From Nitrososphaerota archaeon (GTDB taxonomy: Archaea; Thermoproteota; Nitrososphaeria_A; Caldarchaeales; Calditenuaceae), in NCBI GenBank assembly GCA_009889515.1, contig WUQR01000139.1:868001-932000 (forward strand): 64,000 bases of DNA, in the 5' to 3' direction. Positions 23,851-35,021 of the stretch are shown here, piece by piece; the first letter of the stretch is position 1, and the number at the start of each line of letters is the position of its first letter. A program made the translations under genes and the position numbers. Below the pieces are notes generated by a model. It was given only the letters and a program-made list of their open reading frames with translations, searched no databases and was not told where the DNA came from.

Positions 23851-24036
23851 ATGACAAATGGGAAGGGTCAAATACATGGTATGCCAAGGTTATTAAGGAA
23901 AGGCAGGCTGATAAAGAGCCTTATAATTAAGGTAATAATTCTCCCAAATTATGTAAAGCGAGGTATTTCTGAAAGAGTGGCGCAATTAGGAATCTATTTT
24001 AACGGAATTAGAGTTGGAGGTGTGGGTAATGAGTAA
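23851..24036 (+). CDS. Small basic protein ORF overlapping mod
   Basis: A 61-residue ORF, leaderless behind the TATA box at 23814. Its stop overlaps the mod start (ATGAGTAA), the arrangement of translational coupling. The product is basic (GMPRLLRKGRLIKSLIIKV) with a possible short helix pair (KRGISERVAQLGIYFNG) that could be a degenerate DNA-binding helix. A control protein for the restriction system is possible but unproven; the ORF may also be a non-coding leader. Confidence 0.45.
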   Translation: MTNGKGQIHGMPRLLRKGRLIKSLIIKVIILPNYVKRGISERVAQLGIYFNGIRVGGVGNE

Positions 24037-26524
24037 AGTTGATGAGATCGCTTCTGGAGGGATGGGTGAAAAAGAGAGAATGTTCTTTAATATTTTGGAG
24101 AATATTTTTATCGGTGCAAACATAGAAGGGAAATCTGGCTTCATAAACTTGATGAGGATTAAATCTTCGTATTTTAGGTCTTTCTTGTCAATTCTCAGAA
24201 AAGTGGTTGAGGAAACCCTTGAAGAATTTCCTGAGTTCAGGGAAGAGCTTTTTGATAAACTCTATAATTTCTTTAAGCGATACTTTAGTGAGAGTGGCTC
24301 AATTCATTTTGTCTTCACACCTCTCCAGGAGAATGTTTGGGCTAGAGTTTATACAGATAAGGATGTCGCTTTATTCTGGAAGACTCGAGACCTTTACTAT
24401 GTTAAGACTGACCGTATTTATAAGAGTATGAGTGTGGAACTCGATGCTTTTAAGTTCTTCTTTGATGCTTCTGAGGTGGAGCATAGAAAGGCTTATGAAA
24501 AGAGAAAAATAATCTACGAATTGAAGGACGTAAGTGATGATGGGACAATTCATTTCCAAGTAATTTATTCTGAGAGAGGGAGGGAGACCAAAATCGAAGA
24601 GATTTTAAGGAGATTAAAGGACCGAAGAATCACAGAAGAGGTTCTTGAAAAGGCATTTAAAATATTTGAGAGACAGAGCGAGGTGGATTACTTCATTAAT
24701 AAAGATGCAAATGCTTTCTTAAAAGAGCAGTTTGAGATTTGGCTTAGACATTACATAATGGACGAAGAGAGCGAGTTTAGTGAGAAAAGATTGAAAGAGT
24801 TGAAGGCGCTTAAGACGATAGCGTTTAAAATCATAGATTTCATTTCCCAGTTTGAAGATGAACTGCGAAAAATATGGGAGAAACCCAAATTTGTCCTAAA
24901 TAGCGAATATGTAATAACACTAGATAGAATAAAGGAACTGTGTGGAGAAGATTTTTTGGAAAACTACGTTATTCCTAAAGTTTTAGCTAATGAAGAGCAG
25001 CTACGAGAATGGAGAGAGTTGTTGGGAGTTGAGATTAGGGGTATTTCAGACCTTATCGAAACAAATAGCCTTCAAGGAAAGGAGTGGAAAAAACTACCCA
25101 TAGATACTAAATACTTTGATCATGAATTTAAATGGAAGTTAATAGAAAAAATTTCTGAGAATAACGAGCTTGATAAGGTTTTAGATGGCTGGTTGATTAA
25201 AAGTGAAAACTGGCAAGCATTAAATACAATTTTACCAAAATTCAGAGGAAAAGTTCAGACAATTTACATAGATCCACCATTTAATAAGGAGCAGGACGCT
25301 GACTACTACTACCATGTGAAATATAAGGATTCTACATGGATAACAATGCTTGAGAATAGATTGCAGCTAGCAAGGCACATTTTAAAAGATACAGGAAGCA
25401 TTTTTGTGAGATGCGATGATAACGGTAACATGTACGTTAGACTTTTAATGAACGAAATTTTTGGGGAAGAAAATTTCCAAAATGAAATAGTGATAAAGAC
25501 GTCTGGAATTCAAAAAGAAGCAAAGCGCAAATTTCTTGACGCTACAGAGAGCCTATTTTTCTATGCCAAAAATAAGGAACAGTGTTTGTTTTACGAATTA
25601 TATGAAGAGAGAGAAACTGATTGGCAACCTTTTGTCCATTATCCAGGAGTTAGGAATCAGGATAGGAACTGGAGAGAGGTTTTCGGTATAAAGTTATATC
25701 CTCCATTAGGAAGACATTGGGGGATTAAACAAGATTTAATAGATAAATATATATCTAAAAAGCTCATAAGGTTTAGATGCAAAATCTGCGGATATGAGCA
25801 TTATGAAGGTTTGTGGGACAAATGTCCTAAGTGTGGAGAAAATGATTTTGTTCCCGAAATAAAAAATCCACCTAAAAAGGTTGATTCTAATTGGACGAAT
25901 ATACAAAGTTACTCACAAGACCCAGACTTTCCAACAAGAAATGCTGAGCAACTTATTCAACGTGTGTTTGAGGCTACATCTAAAGAAGGTGATTTAGTTA
26001 TGGACTTCTTTTTAGGTTCTGGTACTGCGACAGCAGTTGCCCATAAGTTAAGGAGAAAATGGATTGGTGTCGAAATGGGTGAACATTTCTGGACAATCGT
26101 CCTACCGCGTATGAAGAAGGTTCTGGCAGGAGAGAAGTCAGGAATAAGTAGAAATATCAATTGGGAGGGTAGCGGTTTCTTTAAGTATTATGAATTGGAG
26201 CAATATGAGCAAACGCTAGATAGAGCAGTCTATAAGGATACTCACCCCTTCGTTGACTGGACCTCTAGCGAAATTTATTCCCACTATGTTTTCCTAAAAG
26301 ATGAAAAAATGCTACGCGCATTAGAGATAGATTACAACAATAAAACCGTTAAAGTTGACCTCTCGAAACTTTATCCAAACATAGATATTGCTGAAACCAT
26401 ATCAAACCTAAAAGGGAAATGGATAAAAAGGTTGACAAGAAAAGAGGTAGAGTTTGAGGATGGGGAAGTTATAGACCTAGGGAATTTAGACTGGAAATTG
26501 ATTAAACCCCTAATATGGTGGTGA
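24029..26524 (+). CDS. mod: Type III-like DNA methyltransferase (Mod subunit)
   Basis: Modifies adenine in an asymmetric site and supplies specificity to the partner Res helicase-nuclease. In the protein of about 831 residues, motif IV DPPF is at residues 415-418 and the SAM motif FLGSGT at about 661-666. This order (catalytic before SAM) is the beta class used by Type III Mod proteins. The N-terminal 400 residues are helical and charged. Between the motifs, residues 584-602 hold a CxxC...CxxC zinc ribbon (CKICGYEHYE, CPKCGEND) in the region expected to read DNA. ATG 24029 follows GGAGGTG by 6 bases; the upstream TTG is rejected. Codon use is very AT-rich (AAA, AAT, TTA), unlike the flanks: recent transfer is likely. 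Confidence 0.92.
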   Translation: MSKVDEIASGGMGEKERMFFNILENIFIGANIEGKSGFINLMRIKSSYFRSFLSILRKVVEETLEEFPEFREELFDKLYNFFKRYFSESGSIHFVFTPLQENVWARVYTDKDVALFWKTRDLYYVKTDRIYKSMSVELDAFKFFFDASEVEHRKAYEKRKIIYELKDVSDDGTIHFQVIYSERGRETKIEEILRRLKDRRITEEVLEKAFKIFERQSEVDYFINKDANAFLKEQFEIWLRHYIMDEESEFSEKRLKELKALKTIAFKIIDFISQFEDELRKIWEKPKFVLNSEYVITLDRIKELCGEDFLENYVIPKVLANEEQLREWRELLGVEIRGISDLIETNSLQGKEWKKLPIDTKYFDHEFKWKLIEKISENNELDKVLDGWLIKSENWQALNTILPKFRGKVQTIYIDPPFNKEQDADYYYHVKYKDSTWITMLENRLQLARHILKDTGSIFVRCDDNGNMYVRLLMNEIFGEENFQNEIVIKTSGIQKEAKRKFLDATESLFFYAKNKEQCLFYELYEERETDWQPFVHYPGVRNQDRNWREVFGIKLYPPLGRHWGIKQDLIDKYISKKLIRFRCKICGYEHYEGLWDKCPKCGENDFVPEIKNPPKKVDSNWTNIQSYSQDPDFPTRNAEQLIQRVFEATSKEGDLVMDFFLGSGTATAVAHKLRRKWIGVEMGEHFWTIVLPRMKKVLAGEKSGISRNINWEGSGFFKYYELEQYEQTLDRAVYKDTHPFVDWTSSEIYSHYVFLKDEKMLRALEIDYNNKTVKVDLSKLYPNIDIAETISNLKGKWIKRLTRKEVEFEDGEVIDLGNLDWKLIKPLIWW

Positions 26525-26526
26525 GA

Positions 26527-29500
26527 ATGTCGGGATACACGCCAGTCAAAGTAATACTCCAAAATATTGCTGATAGTATTGATTTCAATTCTCTTCCACC
26601 TTCATGGTCAACATTTAACAACTTCACCTCATTCTCCAAGACCAAGAATCTCTACGACTACCAAGAGGAGGCATTAAAAAACGCTATCAAGATTCTCTAC
26701 TTCTATTATCAAAGCGCGGAAGACTATAAAGAGGGGGAGCCCTTAGAAACTAACGAAAAGAGAAAAACATTACTTTTCGCAGAATATGAAAGGCGAGGAC
26801 TAGAATCACACCACTTAGCCATTAGAAAGTCAAAACAAAAAACGATTTACAAGCTCTTATCCGAATATTTTGAAAGCGAAGGAGAGCAAATATCTTATCG
26901 AAATCTCATCAACAGAATGTCCTTTTGGATGGCAACTGGATCTGGAAAGACCTTAGTCATCGTAAAACTGATTGAGATTCTGTATTATTTAATGAAAAGA
27001 AGAGAAATTCCTCCTTGCGATATCTTAGTTTTGACATGTCGAGAAGATCTAGTTGAGAAAATGAAGGAATACATAGATGAATACAATGAATACAATAACT
27101 TGAAGATCAGGCTTTGGAACTTGAAAGATTTTAGTAAAGTAAAGTACGGTGGGATCTTGCCAAGGGGAGAGAATACCATAGATGTCTTCATCTACAGGTC
27201 AGATTTAATATGGGACGAAGAGACAGAGAAATATATAGACTTTAGAAATTATGAGAATATTGGAAGATGGTATATCTTACTTGATGAAGCACATAAAGGC
27301 GGCAAAGAAGAATCTAAGAGACAAGCATTCTACTCGATTATGTCGAGAAACGGCTTCCTTTTCAACTTTTCAGCGACGTTTACAGACGAGATAGACATAT
27401 ACACGACTGTATATAACATTAACCTTGCGCAATATGTAGGAAAGGGTTATGGAAAGAATATATACATATCAGAACAAGAATTTGAAGCATTCAGAGATAA
27501 GGAAGATTACCCGAGCACTGAGAAACAGAAAATCGTCTTAAAAACATTAATCCTCTTGACATATCTTAAAAAAATATACAAAGATATAAGAGCAAAAACA
27601 GGTAAGAATGTTTATCACATACCAATGATGCTAACACTTACACATACGGTCAACCATAAAGATCCAAGTAAAGAGCCCGACTTAGAAATGTTCTTCAAAG
27701 AACTTGAAAAAATAGCTGAGGGAAAGATAAAATATGAGACATTTGAGAAAGCAAAAGAAGAGCTTATCCAAGAGTTTGAAAAACAGAATCCCTACGTGTA
27801 TGGATCAGAAAGACTATTAGTTAATACCGAGAAATTAAAAACAATTTCATATACTGATGTTTTATATGAAGTTTTCAACGCACAAACTCCCGGAAACATA
27901 GAAGTTTTGGTACTGCCATCAAATCGGCAGGAATTAGCATTTAAGTTAAAAACATCCGACAGACCTTTTGCGAGTGTCAAAATAGGAGACATAACTAATT
28001 GGCTAAAAACGACTCTCTCAGGATATGAGATAATAGAAAGATGGGAAAATGAGAGCTTCTTCAGAAGTATAAACAAAGACGACTCCGACATAAACATATT
28101 GATGGGGTCTAGAGCTTTCTATGAAGGGTGGGACTCGAATAGACCTAATGTAATCACTTTTATTAACATAGGAGTCGGGACTGACGCTAAAAAATTCATC
28201 ACACAATCAATAGGAAGAGGCGCGCGAATAGAGCCTATGAAAAACAAGAGAAAGAGGATAAACTATTTACGCATTTCGATGGACCCAGAGGCTAAAGAGT
28301 TGGTCAATAATGTCAGCCCAGAAACCTTTATCCCTCTGGAAACTCTTTTTATTTTCGCTACGAAAAAGAACATTATCCAAGAAATAATGACATCAGTAAA
28401 AGAGGAAAAAATGAGACTGGGAGAAATAATCTCGTTGGATAAAAACCCGAAAACAGGAGAAGTAATCTTGCTGATCCCATATTACAGTGGGAGAAGGAAA
28501 GTACCAACAGAAAAAATCCCAAAATTCAGTGTAAATAGAGAATCATTAATGCAGCTTAGAAGATACATCGAAATGATCGGTGATGACAGAGTTTTACTTA
28601 TGCTTCACTTTTCAGAACCTGGTCTAAATTTTGATGATCTCATAAGATTTAAAGAATTTATTTGGAATGATGAGAAATTTAATTTCGTCGAGAATAGTGA
28701 GTTGTTGCCCCCCTCAGTACTCCTTACTCGTCTGATATCTCATATTAACGTCAGTGTAGAGGATTTGGAAAGATTTAAAATACTTGAGGAAGAAATAGTT
28801 CATTTCAAGAGGATTGGAGTGTATTTGGATGAGGTGAGACTTAATGCACTTAAAGAAAAATTGGAAAAAGTGAGGAAATATCCAGAAAAGAAAGTGGTAG
28901 AACAGGAGCTGAGTAATCTTTATGGTAAAATAAGTCAAACAGAGTATGATAGAAGGAAATATGAATTAGAGAAAAAATACGCAGAACAAGAAATTCTTAC
29001 TATAGACGGGAAAAAATTGGGAATATACTACATAGCCGAACACTATTATCTACCCCTTCTGTCGACAGAGGAAAAGATAGAGTGGATAACCCATATAATT
29101 AATACACCTAGCGAACACAAATTCATTAAAGATTTGATTGATTACTCAAAGAAAGAGAGTAACTTATTAAAAGAATTTGATTGGTGGATGTTCAGCAAAA
29201 TAGATGGATACTTAGATGAGATATATATCCCATATTACGACAGTTCTCAGAATTCACTTCGCAAATTTAAGCCAGACTTCATATTTTGGTTATGCAAAGG
29301 CGAGGACTATTACATACTCTTCATAGACCCGAAAGGAACATCCCACACGGAATTCGGCTATAAAATTGATGGTTATGAGAAAATTTTCAGAAATGAGGAT
29401 GGTTCTATTAAGACGTTTCAGGAGTACGGATTTAATATTAGAGTTCACTTAAATCTTTACACAGACGATGTATATAAGCTCCCTGAAAGGTTTCGTAAGG

Positions 29501-29553
29501 AATACTGGTTTGATAGTATCGAAAAATCAATCAATAACTTATTAACGACTTAG
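26527..29553 (+). CDS. res: Type III-like restriction helicase-nuclease (Res subunit)
   Basis: An SF2 translocase-endonuclease of about 1008 residues that cuts foreign DNA with the Mod partner. Walker A ATGSGKT is at residues 136-142, motif II DEAH at 253-256, and motif VI-like QSIGRGARIEP near residue 560. The C-terminal nuclease has P916-D917 and D934-P-K936 (KPDFIFW, LFIDPKGTS), a PD-(D/E)XK variant with Asp in the middle position. The start ATG 26527 follows GGTGGTGAG just after the mod stop; an earlier ATG at 26515 overlaps mod. Both genes share the same AT-rich codon usage. All key motifs look intact, so the system is probably active. Confidence 0.92.
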   Translation: MSGYTPVKVILQNIADSIDFNSLPPSWSTFNNFTSFSKTKNLYDYQEEALKNAIKILYFYYQSAEDYKEGEPLETNEKRKTLLFAEYERRGLESHHLAIRKSKQKTIYKLLSEYFESEGEQISYRNLINRMSFWMATGSGKTLVIVKLIEILYYLMKRREIPPCDILVLTCREDLVEKMKEYIDEYNEYNNLKIRLWNLKDFSKVKYGGILPRGENTIDVFIYRSDLIWDEETEKYIDFRNYENIGRWYILLDEAHKGGKEESKRQAFYSIMSRNGFLFNFSATFTDEIDIYTTVYNINLAQYVGKGYGKNIYISEQEFEAFRDKEDYPSTEKQKIVLKTLILLTYLKKIYKDIRAKTGKNVYHIPMMLTLTHTVNHKDPSKEPDLEMFFKELEKIAEGKIKYETFEKAKEELIQEFEKQNPYVYGSERLLVNTEKLKTISYTDVLYEVFNAQTPGNIEVLVLPSNRQELAFKLKTSDRPFASVKIGDITNWLKTTLSGYEIIERWENESFFRSINKDDSDINILMGSRAFYEGWDSNRPNVITFINIGVGTDAKKFITQSIGRGARIEPMKNKRKRINYLRISMDPEAKELVNNVSPETFIPLETLFIFATKKNIIQEIMTSVKEEKMRLGEIISLDKNPKTGEVILLIPYYSGRRKVPTEKIPKFSVNRESLMQLRRYIEMIGDDRVLLMLHFSEPGLNFDDLIRFKEFIWNDEKFNFVENSELLPPSVLLTRLISHINVSVEDLERFKILEEEIVHFKRIGVYLDEVRLNALKEKLEKVRKYPEKKVVEQELSNLYGKISQTEYDRRKYELEKKYAEQEILTIDGKKLGIYYIAEHYYLPLLSTEEKIEWITHIINTPSEHKFIKDLIDYSKKESNLLKEFDWWMFSKIDGYLDEIYIPYYDSSQNSLRKFKPDFIFWLCKGEDYYILFIDPKGTSHTEFGYKIDGYEKIFRNEDGSIKTFQEYGFNIRVHLNLYTDDVYKLPERFRKEYWFDSIEKSINNLLTT

Positions 29554-29969: not shown

Positions 29970-30761
29970 TTATACTCCTCGCTGTACATGTCTGATCTCA
30001 AGTTTTGTAACAGTTATTGGACAGCTGGATAATATGCAACCCCAGTTCCCGTTAGCGACATAGACATACCAAGATCCCGAGGAGGGAACTGTAAATTCTA
30101 ACGATCCTGAATAGCCATAGCTTGCTGCAGGCCAACTCCACATCCATAGAGAAATTATAGTTTCACAGTAAGAGCCGCGAACATTTTTCTCATAGTCCGC
30201 ATCAGTCCCGATCGCGATATATGTGGCATCATCATTTGATTCCCAGTAGACCCTTATAACATCACCCTTCTTGGCATTTATTGGAAATTGGTGTACTCGG
30301 CACTGCCTATCAATATGTACTGATCCGGAATAGATTATATTCTCTATTGCACCTTCTGCTGGTAGGTACTGGTAAGGTTGAGTATATTGATATGGCTGAG
30401 GATAAATCAGTGTGTTAGTTACTGTCTTGGTGAATACTTCCTGTACGAAAATCGTGGTAGTGTGGGTTTGGGGTCTTATTAAAGTAGGAACAAACAATGC
30501 GGACACAATACCAACGGCGAATAGACCTGCAATTATAGATACGATGAGCCATTTCCTATTCCCGCCAGCCCGTCCATGTTCCTGGCTCCTCTGCACATCT
30601 CCACCTAACTCCTCCTCAGCGAGTTCTAAATACTTCGATAGCAGAGCTCTCCTCCTCTCCCTATAAAACTCCTCATCTATCAAGCCCAACCTCCTAGCTT
30701 CTTCCAGTTTCTTCAAAACTCTAAGAATCCTATCATCATCCCTATCCTCTGGCATATCCAC
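29970..30761 (-). CDS. SHOCT-like membrane-anchored protein with extracellular beta domain
   Basis: A 263-residue protein with three parts. Residues about 10-45 form a SHOCT-like helical pair (ILRVLKKLEEARRLGLIDEE, then FYRERRRALL). Residues about 72-95 are one transmembrane helix (LIVSIIAGLFAVGIVSALFV). After a Thr-rich stalk (HTTTIFVQEVFTKTVTNT) comes a beta-rich outer domain with GSVHIDRQCRVHQFPINAKKG and SLEFTVPSSGSWYVYVANG, similar in style to bacterial PPC domains. Cysteines (GSYCETI, WGCILSSC) may form disulfides. Function unknown. A TATA-like element AATTATTTAA sits just upstream on the minus strand, near 30785-30800. It is the right-hand member of the island. Confidence 0.72.
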   Translation of the reverse strand: MDMPEDRDDDRILRVLKKLEEARRLGLIDEEFYRERRRALLSKYLELAEEELGGDVQRSQEHGRAGGNRKWLIVSIIAGLFAVGIVSALFVPTLIRPQTHTTTIFVQEVFTKTVTNTLIYPQPYQYTQPYQYLPAEGAIENIIYSGSVHIDRQCRVHQFPINAKKGDVIRVYWESNDDATYIAIGTDADYEKNVRGSYCETIISLWMWSWPAASYGYSGSLEFTVPSSGSWYVYVANGNWGCILSSCPITVTKLEIRHVQRGV

Positions 30762-30915: not shown

Positions 30916-32607
30916 CTACTGGCCGCAGCAGCAGTTATCCTCTTTCCCTGAGCAGCCCTGGATAACCGGAACCGATTCTAGGCCTCCGAAGCCAGCGGTC
31001 TTAGTCGAGGCCGTGGGCACCGCCGCCTGCTTTGCCGGGAGCTTACGCTTGTAAAAGTCATCTGCCAGCTTTCTCCCAGTCCGCTTCTCCCATTCCTCGA
31101 TCGAGATGCCGTAGACCGCCTGGATCCTGTCCCTGTACCACGCGGGCACAACGTTAAAGGAGCAGAACGGCACAATCCTCATATCCGGCGTCAGATAGTG
31201 GATGTCACAACGCCTCAACCTCTCTTCATCATGATTATAGGGGTCCATGAAGTGCATCATTCCTAGGAAGAGTGATTTTTTGTGCCATTCTCCGACGCTT
31301 GAGTAGTCGTGTCGTACTATGATGTTGAATAGCATTCTGGAGAGGTTCATTCCCGCGGGTTCTTTTTCTTTCCTGATGTATTTTGATATGTTTGCTAGTA
31401 CTTTCATTCCTACCCAGACTCTGCTTCTGCCCATTTCTATTTCTTCTGCTTTTTCCTGTAGGTATTTGATGAGACCTTCTACGTCTACGAATTCTGTTAT
31501 TGGTTTCATTTTGTCTCCGTCTTTGAATACGTAGGTTCCGGCTCCGCATGCGAAGTGTATGCTTAGCTCGTATTTTGGTGTGCGTGTTAGGGCTTCTATG
31601 AAGTTTGTTAGGGGTGTGCAGGCTGGTACTGGGAACCATGCGTCTCGCGGGATTTCACCATTTGTCTGTTCCTCGATCCTGATGATGCAGTCTGGTATTG
31701 TGATGCGGTATTTTTCTCTCTCTTTCTTGGGCATTCTGCCTGTGAGTGAGACTGGCTGGAAGTTGACTGCTCTTACGACGTCGATGTTTTTGAATCCGAA
31801 TCTGATGATGTCGCCGAGTTCGTGGTCGTTTACGCTCTTGATGACTGTTGGGACTAGGACTATTCCGACGCCGAGTTTTCTGGCGTTTTCTAGGACGCCT
31901 GGGACTTCCCAGTGGTTCTTCGGGTTTGTCCTAGGCGTGACGCCGTCGAAGCTCATGTAGAGGTTGCTGACCCCGGCTTCTTTTATCTTCTTGAAGTACT
32001 CGAAGTCGCGCGAGAGTCTTATTCCGTTTGTGTTGAGCTGGATGTGGTCTACGCCTACTTCTTTGAGGATTCTTATGATTTCGGGGAGGTCGTCTCTGAG
32101 TGTTGGCTCGCCGCCTGTTATCTGGATGCTGTTGCCGGGGACTGGTCTCTCGGCCCTGAGGTTTAGGGCCATCTCTCTAATCTGGTCGAGTGTGGGCTCG
32201 TAGATGTAGCCTGCCTTTTCGGCGTAGAAGAAGCAGTACCAGCAGTGTAGGTCGCATCTATTGGTTATGACTAGGTTGGCTAGGCCTGTGTGGCTTAGGT
32301 GTGAGCTGCATAGGCCGCAGTTGTAGGGGCAGACGCTGCGGGCCGCCTCTACGTCCGGGTTTCCAGTACCTTTTCCGTCCTTTAGCCACCTCGCGAACTT
32401 GTAATACATCTCGGCGTCGCCGAAGTATAGCTCGTCGAATTCCCCGTGCTTGGGGCAGGTCTTCTTGATGTATATCTTGCCGTTGATCTCTAGGACGTCT
32501 GCGGGGAGGACCTGGTAGCACTCTGGGCAGATGCTTCTTGTCCGGGTGACCAGCTTTTCTACCGGCTTTGACTCCTCTTTTGTTTTCTCCTGTATTATTG
32601 TCGCCAT
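30916..32607 (-). CDS. tes: Tetraether synthase-like radical SAM enzyme (Tes/MJ0619 family)
   Basis: Members of this family join the phytanyl chains of two archaeols to make tetraether (GDGT) membrane lipids. The 563-residue protein has the radical SAM cluster motif at C118-x3-C122-x2-C125 (NRCDLHCWYC), the family N-terminal motif C27PEC30...C51PKHG, a second cluster region C93PYNCGLC100, and QITGGEPTLRDDLPEI. A late Cys-rich tail (C552, then CCC at 559-561) is unusual. The family also has paralogs of unclear role, so Tes is the best but not certain name. The minus-strand TATA (32636-32647) gives a leader of about 9 bases. The gene is divergent from a small HTH regulator. Confidence 0.82.
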   Translation of the reverse strand: MATIIQEKTKEESKPVEKLVTRTRSICPECYQVLPADVLEINGKIYIKKTCPKHGEFDELYFGDAEMYYKFARWLKDGKGTGNPDVEAARSVCPYNCGLCSSHLSHTGLANLVITNRCDLHCWYCFFYAEKAGYIYEPTLDQIREMALNLRAERPVPGNSIQITGGEPTLRDDLPEIIRILKEVGVDHIQLNTNGIRLSRDFEYFKKIKEAGVSNLYMSFDGVTPRTNPKNHWEVPGVLENARKLGVGIVLVPTVIKSVNDHELGDIIRFGFKNIDVVRAVNFQPVSLTGRMPKKEREKYRITIPDCIIRIEEQTNGEIPRDAWFPVPACTPLTNFIEALTRTPKYELSIHFACGAGTYVFKDGDKMKPITEFVDVEGLIKYLQEKAEEIEMGRSRVWVGMKVLANISKYIRKEKEPAGMNLSRMLFNIIVRHDYSSVGEWHKKSLFLGMMHFMDPYNHDEERLRRCDIHYLTPDMRIVPFCSFNVVPAWYRDRIQAVYGISIEEWEKRTGRKLADDFYKRKLPAKQAAVPTASTKTAGFGGLESVPVIQGCSGKEDNCCCGQ

Positions 32608-32635
32608 GTATCTTCAACTCGCTTCGCATGTCTGG

Positions 32636-32754
32636 CCTATTTAAGACTTATCCGACCAAATTCACTGTAACAAAGGTAGAATTGTGCTCAAACTAGTTTA
32701 GTTTGACAAATCATAAATACAGGCGTTAAAGATAAGATTTCAGGGTATAAAAAA
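32636..32754. promoter_or_regulatory. Divergent promoter region of tes and its HTH neighbour
   Basis: A minus-strand box GTCTTAAATAGG (32636-32647) is about 30 bases before the tes ATG. A plus-strand box GGGTATAAAAAA (32743-32754) is about 20-27 bases before the HTH ATG at 32770. About 95 bases separate the two boxes, room for operators; the A/T-rich CAAATCATAAATAC lies between them. Confidence 0.6.
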
Positions 32755-32769
32755 AGGGGTCTGGGGAAT

Positions 32770-33141
32770 ATGCTGCTCCCATCCGAGATAGAGGCGAGGG
32801 TGATGCTCCCCCTGCTGAGGGCCGCTGTAGTTACACTGCTTGTTAGGGATCATGGCTTTCAGCAGAGGCGGGTGGCCCAGGCCTTGGGGATAACCCAGCC
32901 CGCTGTTAGCAATTATTTGCGGATGGCGCGGGGTAAGATGCGGGAGCTTTTGGAGAACGGGGTTATGCAGGAGGTGGCCGGGGAGATTGCCGGTGCGATC
33001 CTTCGTGGTGAAGACGATATGGTTGTTAGGGAGCTTATCCAGAAGGGGCTTGAGAGGCTTAGGAGGGAGCGTGTCCTCTGCCTCGCCCATAAAACCCTTG
33101 AACCCGTGCTGGACGTTAATTCCTGCCATATCTGTGATTGA
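32770..33141 (+). CDS. HTH transcriptional regulator, ThiR-type DNA-binding domain only
   Basis: A 123-residue protein with an N-terminal helix-turn-helix (LPSEIEARVMLPLLRAAVV, then QRRVAQALGITQPAVSNYLR at about residues 36-55). This HTH type is the one found in archaeal ThiR and similar regulators, here without the ThiN ligand domain. The C-terminus ends with CHICD, and Cys at about residue 102 suggests a redox or metal site. It is divergent from tes, sharing the intergenic region, so it may control tes or the following RAM-domain gene. This is inference. Confidence 0.78.
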   Translation: MLLPSEIEARVMLPLLRAAVVTLLVRDHGFQQRRVAQALGITQPAVSNYLRMARGKMRELLENGVMQEVAGEIAGAILRGEDDMVVRELIQKGLERLRRERVLCLAHKTLEPVLDVNSCHICD

Positions 33142-33177
33142 AACGCTTAAAAGCATCCGCGGCCGCCTCTATAGAAC

Positions 33178-33681
33178 GTGAAAGCTTTCATCCTGGGGTC
33201 TGTCGGTAAGAGGAGTGAGCTTATTGAGTGTCTCCAGGCTACGAGGAGGGCCCAGTTCGTTGAAGAGGCCTACCTCATATTCGGGACGGCCGACATCATC
33301 GCTAAGGTGAGGGTAAATAATCTGGAGCAGATAAACTCGGTTCTCGACACCCTTTACCAGAACGGCATAGTCGACACGAATACGCTAATCGTTAACGAGG
33401 CGGGGCTCAACTTTGAGAGGCAGCTTGACAAGCCTAAGAAGAAGTGCGCCTACACTTTCATTAAGATTAGGAGGCCGGCGGCTCCGAGGCTCTGGGACAG
33501 GTTTCTGCAGGGAATCGAGTATGTTACTGAGGCGTACGAGATATTTGGCATATATGATGTGATTGTGGGTGTGAGTGAGGATGCTCGAAGCGATTTCTTC
33601 AACTCTTATTTCAGGAAGCTGTGGCTTCTCACGGAGATAAACATGAACTCCACGACGACCATGTTTACTGTAGACATTTAG
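33178..33681 (+). CDS. Tandem Lrp/AsnC RAM-domain protein
   Basis: A 167-residue protein with two consecutive RAM-like modules and no helix-turn-helix: residues about 1-80 (KAFILGSVGKRSELIECLQA, EAYLIFGTADIIAKVRV) and 88-167 (CAYTFIKIRRPAAPRLWDRF, EAYEIFGIYDVIVGV). The start is a GTG at 33178 that follows a TATA-like CTTAAAAGC by about 28 bases, so leaderless. It follows the HTH gene by 36 bases and converges with sufS (4-base overlap). A sensor that acts with the neighbouring HTH protein is a reasonable guess. Confidence 0.75.
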   Translation: MKAFILGSVGKRSELIECLQATRRAQFVEEAYLIFGTADIIAKVRVNNLEQINSVLDTLYQNGIVDTNTLIVNEAGLNFERQLDKPKKKCAYTFIKIRRPAAPRLWDRFLQGIEYVTEAYEIFGIYDVIVGVSEDARSDFFNSYFRKLWLLTEINMNSTTTMFTVDI

Positions 33682-34916
33682 GCTTTGAAGTGTTTCAGGG
33701 CCTGCTTTAGGCCCTCTGCTAGGAGCTGGACCTCCTCTTTCGTGTTGTAGATGTAGAAGCTGGCCCGCGTGGTTGCTGTTAGGCCTAGCTTTGTGTGGAG
33801 TGGCATGGCGCAGTGGTGCCCTGCCCTGACGGCTATATTGAACTCCCTGTCCAGGTACTCTGCCAGGTCATGGGGGTGGATATCGCTTAGTAGGAAGGAG
33901 ACGAGGCCGCAGCGGTCCTTCACTGACTCCGGCCCAACGATTCTGAGCCGTGGAATCTCGGAGAACTCTTGGAGGGCTGTCTCCGTCAGCTCCTCCTCAT
34001 GCTTCCTCACCCACTCGAGTCCTATCTCCTGAAGATATTCGACGGCCGCCCCTAGACCCACTACGTCACCTACGCTAGGAGTGCCTGCCTCGAATTTCCA
34101 AGGAACCTCATTCCAGCTCGAGCCGCTCAGAGTTACTTCGCGGATCATCTCGCCACCACCCATGAAGGGCTCCATGGACTCGAGCATTTCTTCACGCGCT
34201 ATTAGGCAGCCTACTCCCATAGGCCCCAACATCTTGTGGCCTGAGAAGGCTAGGAAGTCGCATCCAATCTCCCTGAAGCTGACAGGCATGTGGGGGACGC
34301 TCTGGGCCGCGTCAATTAGCACTGTTGCACCGTACTCCTTTGCAGCCTTTGTAATCTCTTTGACGGGGTTGATTGTTCCGAGGACGTTTGATGCGTGGAC
34401 TATGGCAAGCATGTCTGCATCCTTCAGGAATTTGTCGAGGGAGCTTAGGTCAAGGTAGCCGTCCATCGTGATCGGTATCGCCTCAATTCTGAGGTCTTTT
34501 ATTCTCGCGATGAGCTGCCACGGGACTATATTGCTGTGATGCTCCATCTCAGTGATGACTATCTTGCCTCCTCTCTTGATCTTGTGTAGTGCGTAGGAGT
34601 AGGCGACCAGGTTTATCGCCTCAGTAGTGTTTCTGGTAAAGACGACCTCGCGCCAGCTGTTCGCATCCACGAAGTTTGCTATCTTCCTCCTCACACTCTC
34701 ATAGAGCTCGGTAGCTTCTATCGAGATGCCGTAGACGCCCCTATGGACATTCGCGTTAGTATTGGCATAGTATAGCACCATGGCGTTTAACACTCGCCTA
34801 GGCTTCTGGGTTGTGGCAGCGTTATCCAGATAGACTAGGGGTCTGGGGCCCCTGATTTTGGAGAAAATGGGGAAGTCTTCCCTAATCCTGTAAGGCGATC
34901 TAGATGCTGCTTCCAT
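33678..34916 (-). CDS. sufS: Cysteine desulfurase, SufS type
   Basis: A PLP-dependent enzyme that draws sulfur from cysteine for Fe-S clusters and other thio-cofactors. The protein has about 412 residues, with VYLDNAATTQKP near the N-terminus, the PLP lysine in SGHKMLGPMG, and the active-site Cys in RAGHHCAMPLH. Length and motifs are those of group II SufS/CsdA. The ATG at 34916 is chosen because a TATA box (ACTTATATCAC on the minus strand, about 34947-34957) lies upstream and GGGAG directly precedes it; the longer reading to 34964 would cross that box. It is divergent from the PPOX-fold gene, close to the thiamine operon, which needs sulfur for the thiazole. Confidence 0.93.
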   Translation of the reverse strand: MEAASRSPYRIREDFPIFSKIRGPRPLVYLDNAATTQKPRRVLNAMVLYYANTNANVHRGVYGISIEATELYESVRRKIANFVDANSWREVVFTRNTTEAINLVAYSYALHKIKRGGKIVITEMEHHSNIVPWQLIARIKDLRIEAIPITMDGYLDLSSLDKFLKDADMLAIVHASNVLGTINPVKEITKAAKEYGATVLIDAAQSVPHMPVSFREIGCDFLAFSGHKMLGPMGVGCLIAREEMLESMEPFMGGGEMIREVTLSGSSWNEVPWKFEAGTPSVGDVVGLGAAVEYLQEIGLEWVRKHEEELTETALQEFSEIPRLRIVGPESVKDRCGLVSFLLSDIHPHDLAEYLDREFNIAVRAGHHCAMPLHTKLGLTATTRASFYIYNTKEEVQLLAEGLKQALKHFKA

Positions 34917-35021
34917 CTCCCGAACTATGAAGCAAATATAGCCAGAGTGATATAAGTCTGCCATTGCTCTCCAAACCGGCTAACGGTTATATCCACCTGT
35001 GAGACATGGTAGGGACGTGCC

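What the first reader, a model, noticed from the sequence alone, without database searches (positions are those of the whole stretch)
30916..33681. Candidate regulatory module for tetraether lipid synthesis
The tes-like gene is divergent from a ThiR-type HTH protein ending in CxxC, followed by a tandem RAM-domain sensor. Regulation of tetraether formation is largely undescribed; a redox-, metal- or amino-acid-responsive control is a testable idea. The unusual CCC tail of the enzyme adds to the interest.
Basis: inference. Interest (0 to 1): 0.58.

Follow-up and report, generated by a model that had tools for sequence, protein, structure and literature searches.

The report
Tetraether gene beside a swapped regulator
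In this heat-loving archaeon the gene that welds membrane lipids into tetraethers sits back to back with an unusual DNA-binding protein, but relatives show that the older and far more widespread partner of this gene is a different regulator of the TrmB family, so the likely control switch lies elsewhere and can now be tested.

Summary
30916-32607 (-) is tetraether synthase (tes). 32770-33141 (+) is a helix-turn-helix (HTH) protein equal to the N-terminal half of ThiR without ThiN; 33178-33681 (+) is two Lrp/AsnC ligand-binding (RAM) domains without a DNA-binding domain. All six genomes of the genus, own one included, keep tes<>HTH>RAM. The arrangement does not extend beyond Calditenuaceae: this HTH lies within 10 kb of tes in 7 of 7 Calditenuaceae and 0 of 93 other Thermoproteota with both genes listed. 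Sister genera have dtd2 between tes and HTH.

A stronger lead came out of that test. In 68 of 150 Thermoproteota genomes with a listed tes (30 genera, 8 families), the gene divergent from tes, 66-274 bp away, is a TrmB-family regulator; six more lie within 3 kb. The site TTCACCKTATGAA occurs 7 times in 40 genomes searched, 6 of them between tes and TrmB. Calditenuaceae keep a diverged TrmB ortholog unlinked (145 kb away here). My reading: tes control was rewired in this family, and the HTH now occupies the vacated position. That it binds the strongly conserved tes promoter is possible but unshown.

The parts
30916..32607 (-). tes, tetraether lipid synthase (563 aa) with all four metal sites of MJ0619 and a Cys-rich C-terminal tail (CSGKEDNCCCGQ)
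   Evidence: metal-ligand motifs C27-x2-C30-x20-C51-x2-H54, CPYNCGLC, CDLHCWYC and the C-terminal Cys/Met set line up with 7tol; ligand assignments from PMC9433317 (passages)
32637..32645 (-). TATA-like element of tes (CTTAAATAG), start codon about 30 bp downstream
   Evidence: sequence; TTAAATA is kept in 6 of 6 genus members
32638..32681 (-). conserved tes promoter block TTCTACCTTTGTTACAGTGAATTTGGTCGGATAAGTCTTAAATA; contains the imperfect dyad TYAC-n-GTGA (32661-32670), candidate operator
   Evidence: 32 of 46 columns invariant in six genomes against 24 of 147 elsewhere in the aligned region; a 24-base pattern from it is found only at tes, in 4 of 6 genomes, with up to 3 mismatches. That it is an operator is inference
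32688..32706 (.). perfect inverted repeat TCAAACTA-GTT-TAGTTTGA between the two promoters
   Evidence: sequence; imperfect or lost in the other five genus members, so probably not an essential operator
32712..32719 (+). TATA-like element of the HTH gene
   Evidence: sequence; a TATA-like element is kept there in the six genus members
32770..33141 (+). HTH protein of the ThiR N-terminal-domain type, 123 aa, with invariant C104/H107/C119/C122 putative metal site
   Evidence: AlphaFold2 model mean pLDDT 91.9, all helical
33146..33153 (+). TATA-like element for the RAM gene (CTTAAAAG), 25-32 bp before its GTG start
   Evidence: sequence
33178..33681 (+). tandem RAM (Lrp/AsnC ligand-binding) protein, 167 aa, no DNA-binding domain found
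33678..34964 (-). SufS-family cysteine desulfurase, convergent neighbour of RAM
   Evidence: kept next to RAM in the family loci read that have HTH-RAM, except G001 where four genes intervene

Best explanation
The three genes are real and kept together in one genus, but they are not a general tetraether control module. Across much of Thermoproteota the usual arrangement is a TrmB-family regulator divergent from tes, with a palindromic site (TTCACC[GT]TATGAA) in several families; I infer that this protein (call it TesR) binds there and sets the expression of both genes. In Calditenuaceae the TrmB ortholog left the locus and diverged; dtd2-HTH and then, in the window's genus, HTH alone came to lie there. 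The HTH protein is an XRE/ThiR-type DNA-binding protein whose C-terminal CxxH...CxxC site probably holds a structural or sensing metal. In this genus tes is probably controlled through the conserved 44-bp promoter block; the divergent HTH is the best local candidate to bind it, and the unlinked TrmB ortholog is the other. RAM probably has its own promoter and is a passenger. Shown: gene identities, linkage statistics, promoter constraint, motif distribution. Inferred: every binding and sensing step.
For: TrmB directly divergent from tes in 68 of 150 genomes with a listed tes (161 searched) in 8 families, gap 66-274 bp; 6 more within 3 kb, including 5 of 5 of family f2; 30 genera. Eight of 30 upstream neighbours given to Pfam are TrmB. 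TTCACCKTATGAA: 7 places in 40 genomes, 6 in the tes-TrmB gap; reversed control 4 places. Calditenuaceae TrmB groups with the order's TrmBs (88/80) and, with them, with f7's tes-linked TrmBs (94/91), but lies 145 kb from tes here and is unlinked in 7 of 7. HTH within 10 kb of tes in 7 of 7 Calditenuaceae, 0 of 93 others with both listed. dtd2 lies between tes and HTH in G001, G002 and G003. Promoter constraint.
Against: TrmB linkage is missing in many families (for example f6, f9, f13, f18, f25, f27), and in f4 it is loose at best, so it is not universal. The TrmB site was read off an alignment of 20 intergenic regions and is not reliably found in tes promoters of the order; 4 reversed-control hits show that chance sites occur, and 34 of 40 genomes lack the exact core. 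f11 and f21 were not tested for it and f7 lacks it by eye. No expression or binding data exist for any of these genes here.
Confidence: 0.62

Rival explanations
1. One reading: the HTH protein binds the shared intergenic region and, using its Cys3His metal site, regulates tes and itself; RAM tunes it with an amino-acid ligand.
For: Divergent order kept in 6 of 6 genus members; constrained promoter block with the dyad TYAC-n-GTGA found only at tes; invariant C/H/C/C motif; HTH sits where other families carry TrmB.
Against: The tightly conserved part is on the tes side and the HTH side varies; no such dyad is evident upstream of HTH in other families (by eye); adjacency is limited to one family; RAM is unlinked from HTH in G002 and in f2/f4.
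Confidence: 0.33
2. No dedicated regulation: tes is a constitutive housekeeping gene with a strong core promoter, and HTH and RAM are neighbours by rearrangement.
For: HTH's other partners are dtd2, MoaD/ThiF/AOR and ThiR; a B-recognition plus TATA-type element accounts for the tes-proximal part of the block (by eye).
Against: About 28 bp upstream of the core element are also conserved; the recurrent TrmB-tes pair elsewhere argues that tes is regulated; tes was reported upregulated in cold stress in Saccharolobus islandicus (PMC10465181, passages read).
Confidence: 0.28
3. The HTH is an Fe-S or sulfur-status regulator (IscR-like in logic) whose true targets are sulfur-transfer and Fe-S enzyme genes; tes, a multi-cluster radical SAM enzyme, was recruited to that regulon.
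For: Invariant C/H/C/C site; SufS next door in the family; MoaD/ThiF/AOR next to it in f4 and lipA plus 2-oxoacid dehydrogenase genes next to relatives in Nitrososphaerales.
Against: Other neighbours are housekeeping (dtd2, DNA ligase, translation factor); relatives near lipA are about 35% identical and may be paralogs; metal geometry could not be measured.
Confidence: 0.2

Closest known systems
Tetraether synthase Tes / GDGT-MAS (MJ0619)
   Same: Full-length homology and all four metal sites
   Different: Variable Cys-rich C-terminal tail after a conserved linker, shared by most Calditenuaceae and Caldarchaeaceae
ThiR (HTH-ThiN thiamine regulator of archaea; name recalled)
   Same: The whole 123-aa HTH protein aligns with its N-terminal domain including the Cys/His motif
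   Different: No ThiN ligand domain, so no thiamine-phosphate sensing expected
TrmB-family regulators (PF01978/PF11495)
   Same: The protein divergent from tes in other families is a TrmB with its C-terminal domain
   Different: Known members control sugar, redox or chromatin functions (recalled; PMC9426492 and PMC7325993 seen as search listings with the start of the abstract); a link to tes was not found
Stand-alone RAM/SAM proteins of the Lrp/AsnC family (e.g. PDB 2e1a)
   Same: The second half matches stand-alone AsnC proteins and the first half the RAM domain of PH1519
   Different: Two domains in one chain

Membership tests
Tetraether synthase (Tes) | Equivalog HMM above curated cut-off | tested here: met
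   NF045702, 724.1 bits against 450
Tetraether synthase (Tes) | Radical SAM CX3CX2C, N-terminal [4Fe-4S], rubredoxin-like and C-terminal cluster ligands | tested here: met
   All motifs align with 7tol; ligand list from PMC9433317 passages
Tetraether synthase (Tes) | Joins phytanyl chains to biphytanyl | not testable with these tools
   needs enzyme assay or lipid analysis
ThiR | HTH N-terminal domain of the ThiR type | tested here: met
   alignment over residues 3-122 with the ThiN-bearing paralog
ThiR | C-terminal ThiN ligand domain | tested here: not met
   protein ends at residue 123; so it is not filed as ThiR
IscR-like Fe-S regulator | Cys3His cluster-binding motif | tested here: inconclusive
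   invariant C/H/C/C present, but order and spacing differ from IscR (recalled) and no cluster data
Lrp/AsnC regulator | Ligand-binding (RAM) domain | tested here: met
   PF01037 45.7 bits against 25
Lrp/AsnC regulator | N-terminal DNA-binding HTH | tested here: not met
   none found in 167 aa
TrmB (tes neighbour in other families; G000:C139:753164) | TrmB DNA-binding domain and C-terminal Regulator_TrmB domain | tested here: met
   PF01978 in 8 and PF11495 in 6 of 30 neighbours scanned; window's species: PF01978 78.3 bits against 25.6, PF11495 19.0 bits, just under its cut-off of 22.2

The most novel reading that the evidence does not exclude
Tetraether synthesis in Thermoproteota is governed by a dedicated TrmB-family regulator (TesR) encoded back to back with tes, acting on TTCACCKTATGAA-like sites; in Calditenuaceae this regulator was displaced from the locus and a metal-binding ThiR-type HTH protein took over the divergent position and control of tes, a natural case of regulator replacement at the key step of monolayer-membrane formation.
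Probability: 0.3. Interest if true: 0.8.

Novelty: new variant of a known kind. Interest (0 to 1): 0.6.

Why it matters
How archaea control whether their lipids are joined into tetraethers is an open question; Zeng et al. 2022 (PMC8941075, one passage read) names its regulation as something still to be understood, and GDGT lipids underlie palaeoclimate indices (PMC9433317, abstract passage). A regulator gene next to tes in 30 genera, with a candidate site, turns that question into a defined binding and deletion experiment; the window's family supplies a natural contrast in which the arrangement was rewired.

Tried and rejected
Rejected: that tes-HTH-RAM is a general module; that the perfect 19-bp palindrome at 32688-32706 is the operator (not conserved); that the CCC tail is unique to this gene; that the TrmB site survives in the window's tes promoter. 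For the last, the PWM's best hit in G000 lies near the HTH start and not near tes; G010 scores 10.2 bits in the right place, but G006, G007, G008 and G009 do not score above background.

Led nowhere: fold comparison of the HTH model gave no Foldseek match at E<=0.001 and middling VIA Z (best 5.8, Bcl-w; DeoR DNA-binding domain 5.0); metal-site geometry could not be measured because I had no model coordinates; literature search for ThiR gave nothing usable; papers on tes regulation gave expression data only or nothing; an extension of the TrmB test to other phyla was not possible. The class search returned only the same order.

Mistakes corrected: one search used minus-strand loci unreversed (redone); the first TrmB tree held wrong-frame or truncated ORFs for some rows, of which f1_G002 and f1_G009 were replaced before (f1_G006 stayed truncated at 233 aa). 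My ORF caller missed the TrmB beside tes in G133, which one search shows.

Rows dropped before a count: 8 of 38 upstream neighbours (L195, L208, L215, L217, L218, L220, L222, L231) were not given to Pfam; only the 150 of 158 tes matches listed could be used, and some second-rank TrmB rows were not entered; one search cut its list at about E 1e-17. The 30 sequences leave out rows without a readable C-terminus.

Full report
1. Observation. The three ORFs exist at the stated places. The minus-strand gene is tetraether synthase by curated HMM and by PDB match to GDGT-MAS 7tol, with the metal-ligand motifs described in PMC9433317 (passages) aligned. The divergent 123-aa protein is the N-terminal, DNA-binding domain type of ThiR without ThiN. 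Its C-terminal 'CxxC' belongs to C104-x2-H107-x11-C119-x2-C122, invariant in 53 of 53 aligned sequences from Nitrososphaeria, Sysuiplasma and others, which points to a metal site; the AlphaFold2 model is confident (mean pLDDT 91.9) but gave no clear full-length structural neighbour. The third protein is a tandem RAM protein without a DNA-binding domain.

2. Where we are. The window lies in a 2.11-Mb, 154-contig assembly. So this is Calditenuaceae, Caldarchaeales (formerly Aigarchaeota; PMC10547907, start of abstract); the species itself is unnamed. Families f5 to f36 below remain unnamed.

3. Conservation inside the family. tes and HTH are adjacent and divergent in 6 of 6 genus members including the own genome, and RAM follows HTH in the same 6. 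In G001 (another genus) the order is tes<>dtd2>HTH>RAM; in G002 tes<>dtd2>HTH with RAM elsewhere; in G003 dtd2 and further ORFs lie between; in G005 dtd2-HTH lies on another contig than tes; in G011 HTH-RAM-SufS is interior to a contig without tes nearby; G004 (57% complete) has neither tes nor an HTH ortholog detected. dtd2 (PF04414) is present beside HTH in 14 of the 20 loci read and in 13 of the 80 loci, across three families, so dtd2-HTH is the older pair. In none of the 12 loci read from other families of the order was tes near HTH.

4. Conservation outside. In a draw of 161 Thermoproteota genomes at least 90% complete, 158 have tes (150 listed). With the HTH profile on the same draw, HTH lies within 10 kb of tes in 7 of 7 Calditenuaceae and in 0 of 93 other genomes that have both rows listed. 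HTH's other neighbours are MoaD (SAMP1-like), ThiF and AOR in f4; ThiR and a glycerol-1-phosphate-dehydrogenase-like gene (370 bits, below its cut-off of 413) in f2; and lipA plus E1/E2/E3 of a 2-oxoacid dehydrogenase beside 33-38% identical relatives in Nitrososphaerales.

5. The TrmB lead. I read the tes surroundings in 38 genomes outside the family (28 outside the order, 10 inside). Of 30 upstream neighbours given to Pfam, 8 are TrmB-family regulators, all divergent from tes. A profile of these eight (A4) searched on the same 161 genomes and compared with the tes places gives 68 genomes with TrmB directly divergent (gap 66-274 bp) out of 150 with a listed tes: f5 7 of 9, f7 24 of 26, f8 11 of 12, f11 12 of 13, f12 3 of 3, f21 5 of 8, f23 4 of 5, f29 2 of 2 (denominators are all genomes of the family in the draw, including those whose tes was not listed). 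That is 30 genera. Six more are divergent within 3 kb: 5 of 5 of f2 and one of f7. In f4, 8 of 13 have TrmB 9-50 kb from tes on the same contig. In Calditenuaceae it is unlinked in 7 of 7 (145 kb in the own genome; different contigs in four). The other families, f18 among them, have no linkage. A tree of 28 TrmB proteins puts the Calditenuaceae proteins with those of f2 and f4 (88/80) and these with f7 (94/91), on a long stem (0.86), so descent from the tes-linked gene is likely but of moderate support.

6. A candidate site. Intergenic regions of f5, f8, f12, f23 and f29 share (A/T)TTCACC(G/T)TATGAA(A/T), with departures in single genomes, between the TrmB start and the tes promoter. The exact core TTCACCKTATGAA was sought in 40 genomes: 7 places in 6 genomes, 6 of them in the tes-TrmB gap, against 4 places for the reversed control. 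It is absent from the window's species and genus in that search, and a PWM does not recover it dependably in the order's tes promoters. f7 intergenic regions are conserved among themselves but differ.

7. The window's own promoter. In six genus members a 46-column block at the tes promoter has 32 invariant columns, against 24 of 147 in the rest of the aligned region and 5 of 67 fourfold-degenerate sites in the first 200 codons of tes. It includes TATA and about 28 bp upstream with an imperfect dyad TYAC-n-GTGA. With up to three mismatches a 24-base pattern from this block is found once in each of 4 of 6 genomes, always at tes; in G007 and G008 it was not found at that stringency although the aligned block is there. 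So tes alone seems to carry it. RAM has a TATA-like element 25-32 bp before its GTG, which makes an independent transcript likely.

8. Mechanism. Shown: identities, linkage, constraint, motif distribution. Inferred: TrmB (TesR) binds the tes-TrmB gap and controls both genes; in Calditenuaceae this arrangement was lost, and HTH, or the unlinked TrmB, acts on the new block; the Cys3His site of HTH binds metal; RAM is a passenger. I give the rewiring account 0.62, direct control of tes by HTH 0.33, and no dedicated control 0.28 (these overlap).

9. Known or new. tes, RAM, ThiR-type HTH and TrmB are known kinds. In the held literature I found no report of a TrmB-tes pair nor of a tes regulator; PMC8941075 does not contain the word TrmB. 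Most subscription papers and preprints are not in that library.

Noticed in passing
G000:C139:753164-753916 (L232:6647-7426), outside the window: Unlinked TrmB ortholog of the regulator that flanks tes in other families; a geranylgeranyl-reductase-like gene (25.1 bits, just under its Pfam cut-off) lies about 5 kb away.
   Followed up: partly
L173:5992-12232 and similar loci: Relatives of the HTH protein head a lipA-E1-E2-E3 2-oxoacid dehydrogenase gene row in Nitrososphaerales, another radical SAM enzyme beside this HTH type.
   Followed up: partly
L107:6585-10173 and other Geocrenenecus loci: dtd2-HTH-MoaD (SAMP1-like) row near ThiF and a tungsten-type aldehyde ferredoxin oxidoreductase.
   Followed up: partly
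L100:4396-6779, L104:3729-7576: In Caldarchaeaceae HTH and ThiR converge (in some genomes with one ORF between them), and ThiR is divergent from a glycerol-1-phosphate-dehydrogenase-like gene of lipid synthesis.
   Followed up: no
G042:C10, G043:C21, G048:C17, G069:C27: tes reading frames of about 800-1014 aa whose match starts at residue 124, suggesting inteins in tes.
   Followed up: no
L220 (G168:C7): Two divergent radical SAM ORFs of 479 and 487 aa, both matching tes, back to back.
   Followed up: no
L198:6422-6880: A DtxR-type metal-dependent repressor gene follows the TrmB gene next to tes in one f7 genome.
   Followed up: no
window 24014-29553: Two long overlapping ORFs (836 and 1012 aa) that look by eye like a type III restriction-modification pair; no search was made.
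   Followed up: no
window 29970-30761: 263-aa ORF downstream of tes with no family match except a weak GvpG hit (17 bits).
   Followed up: no
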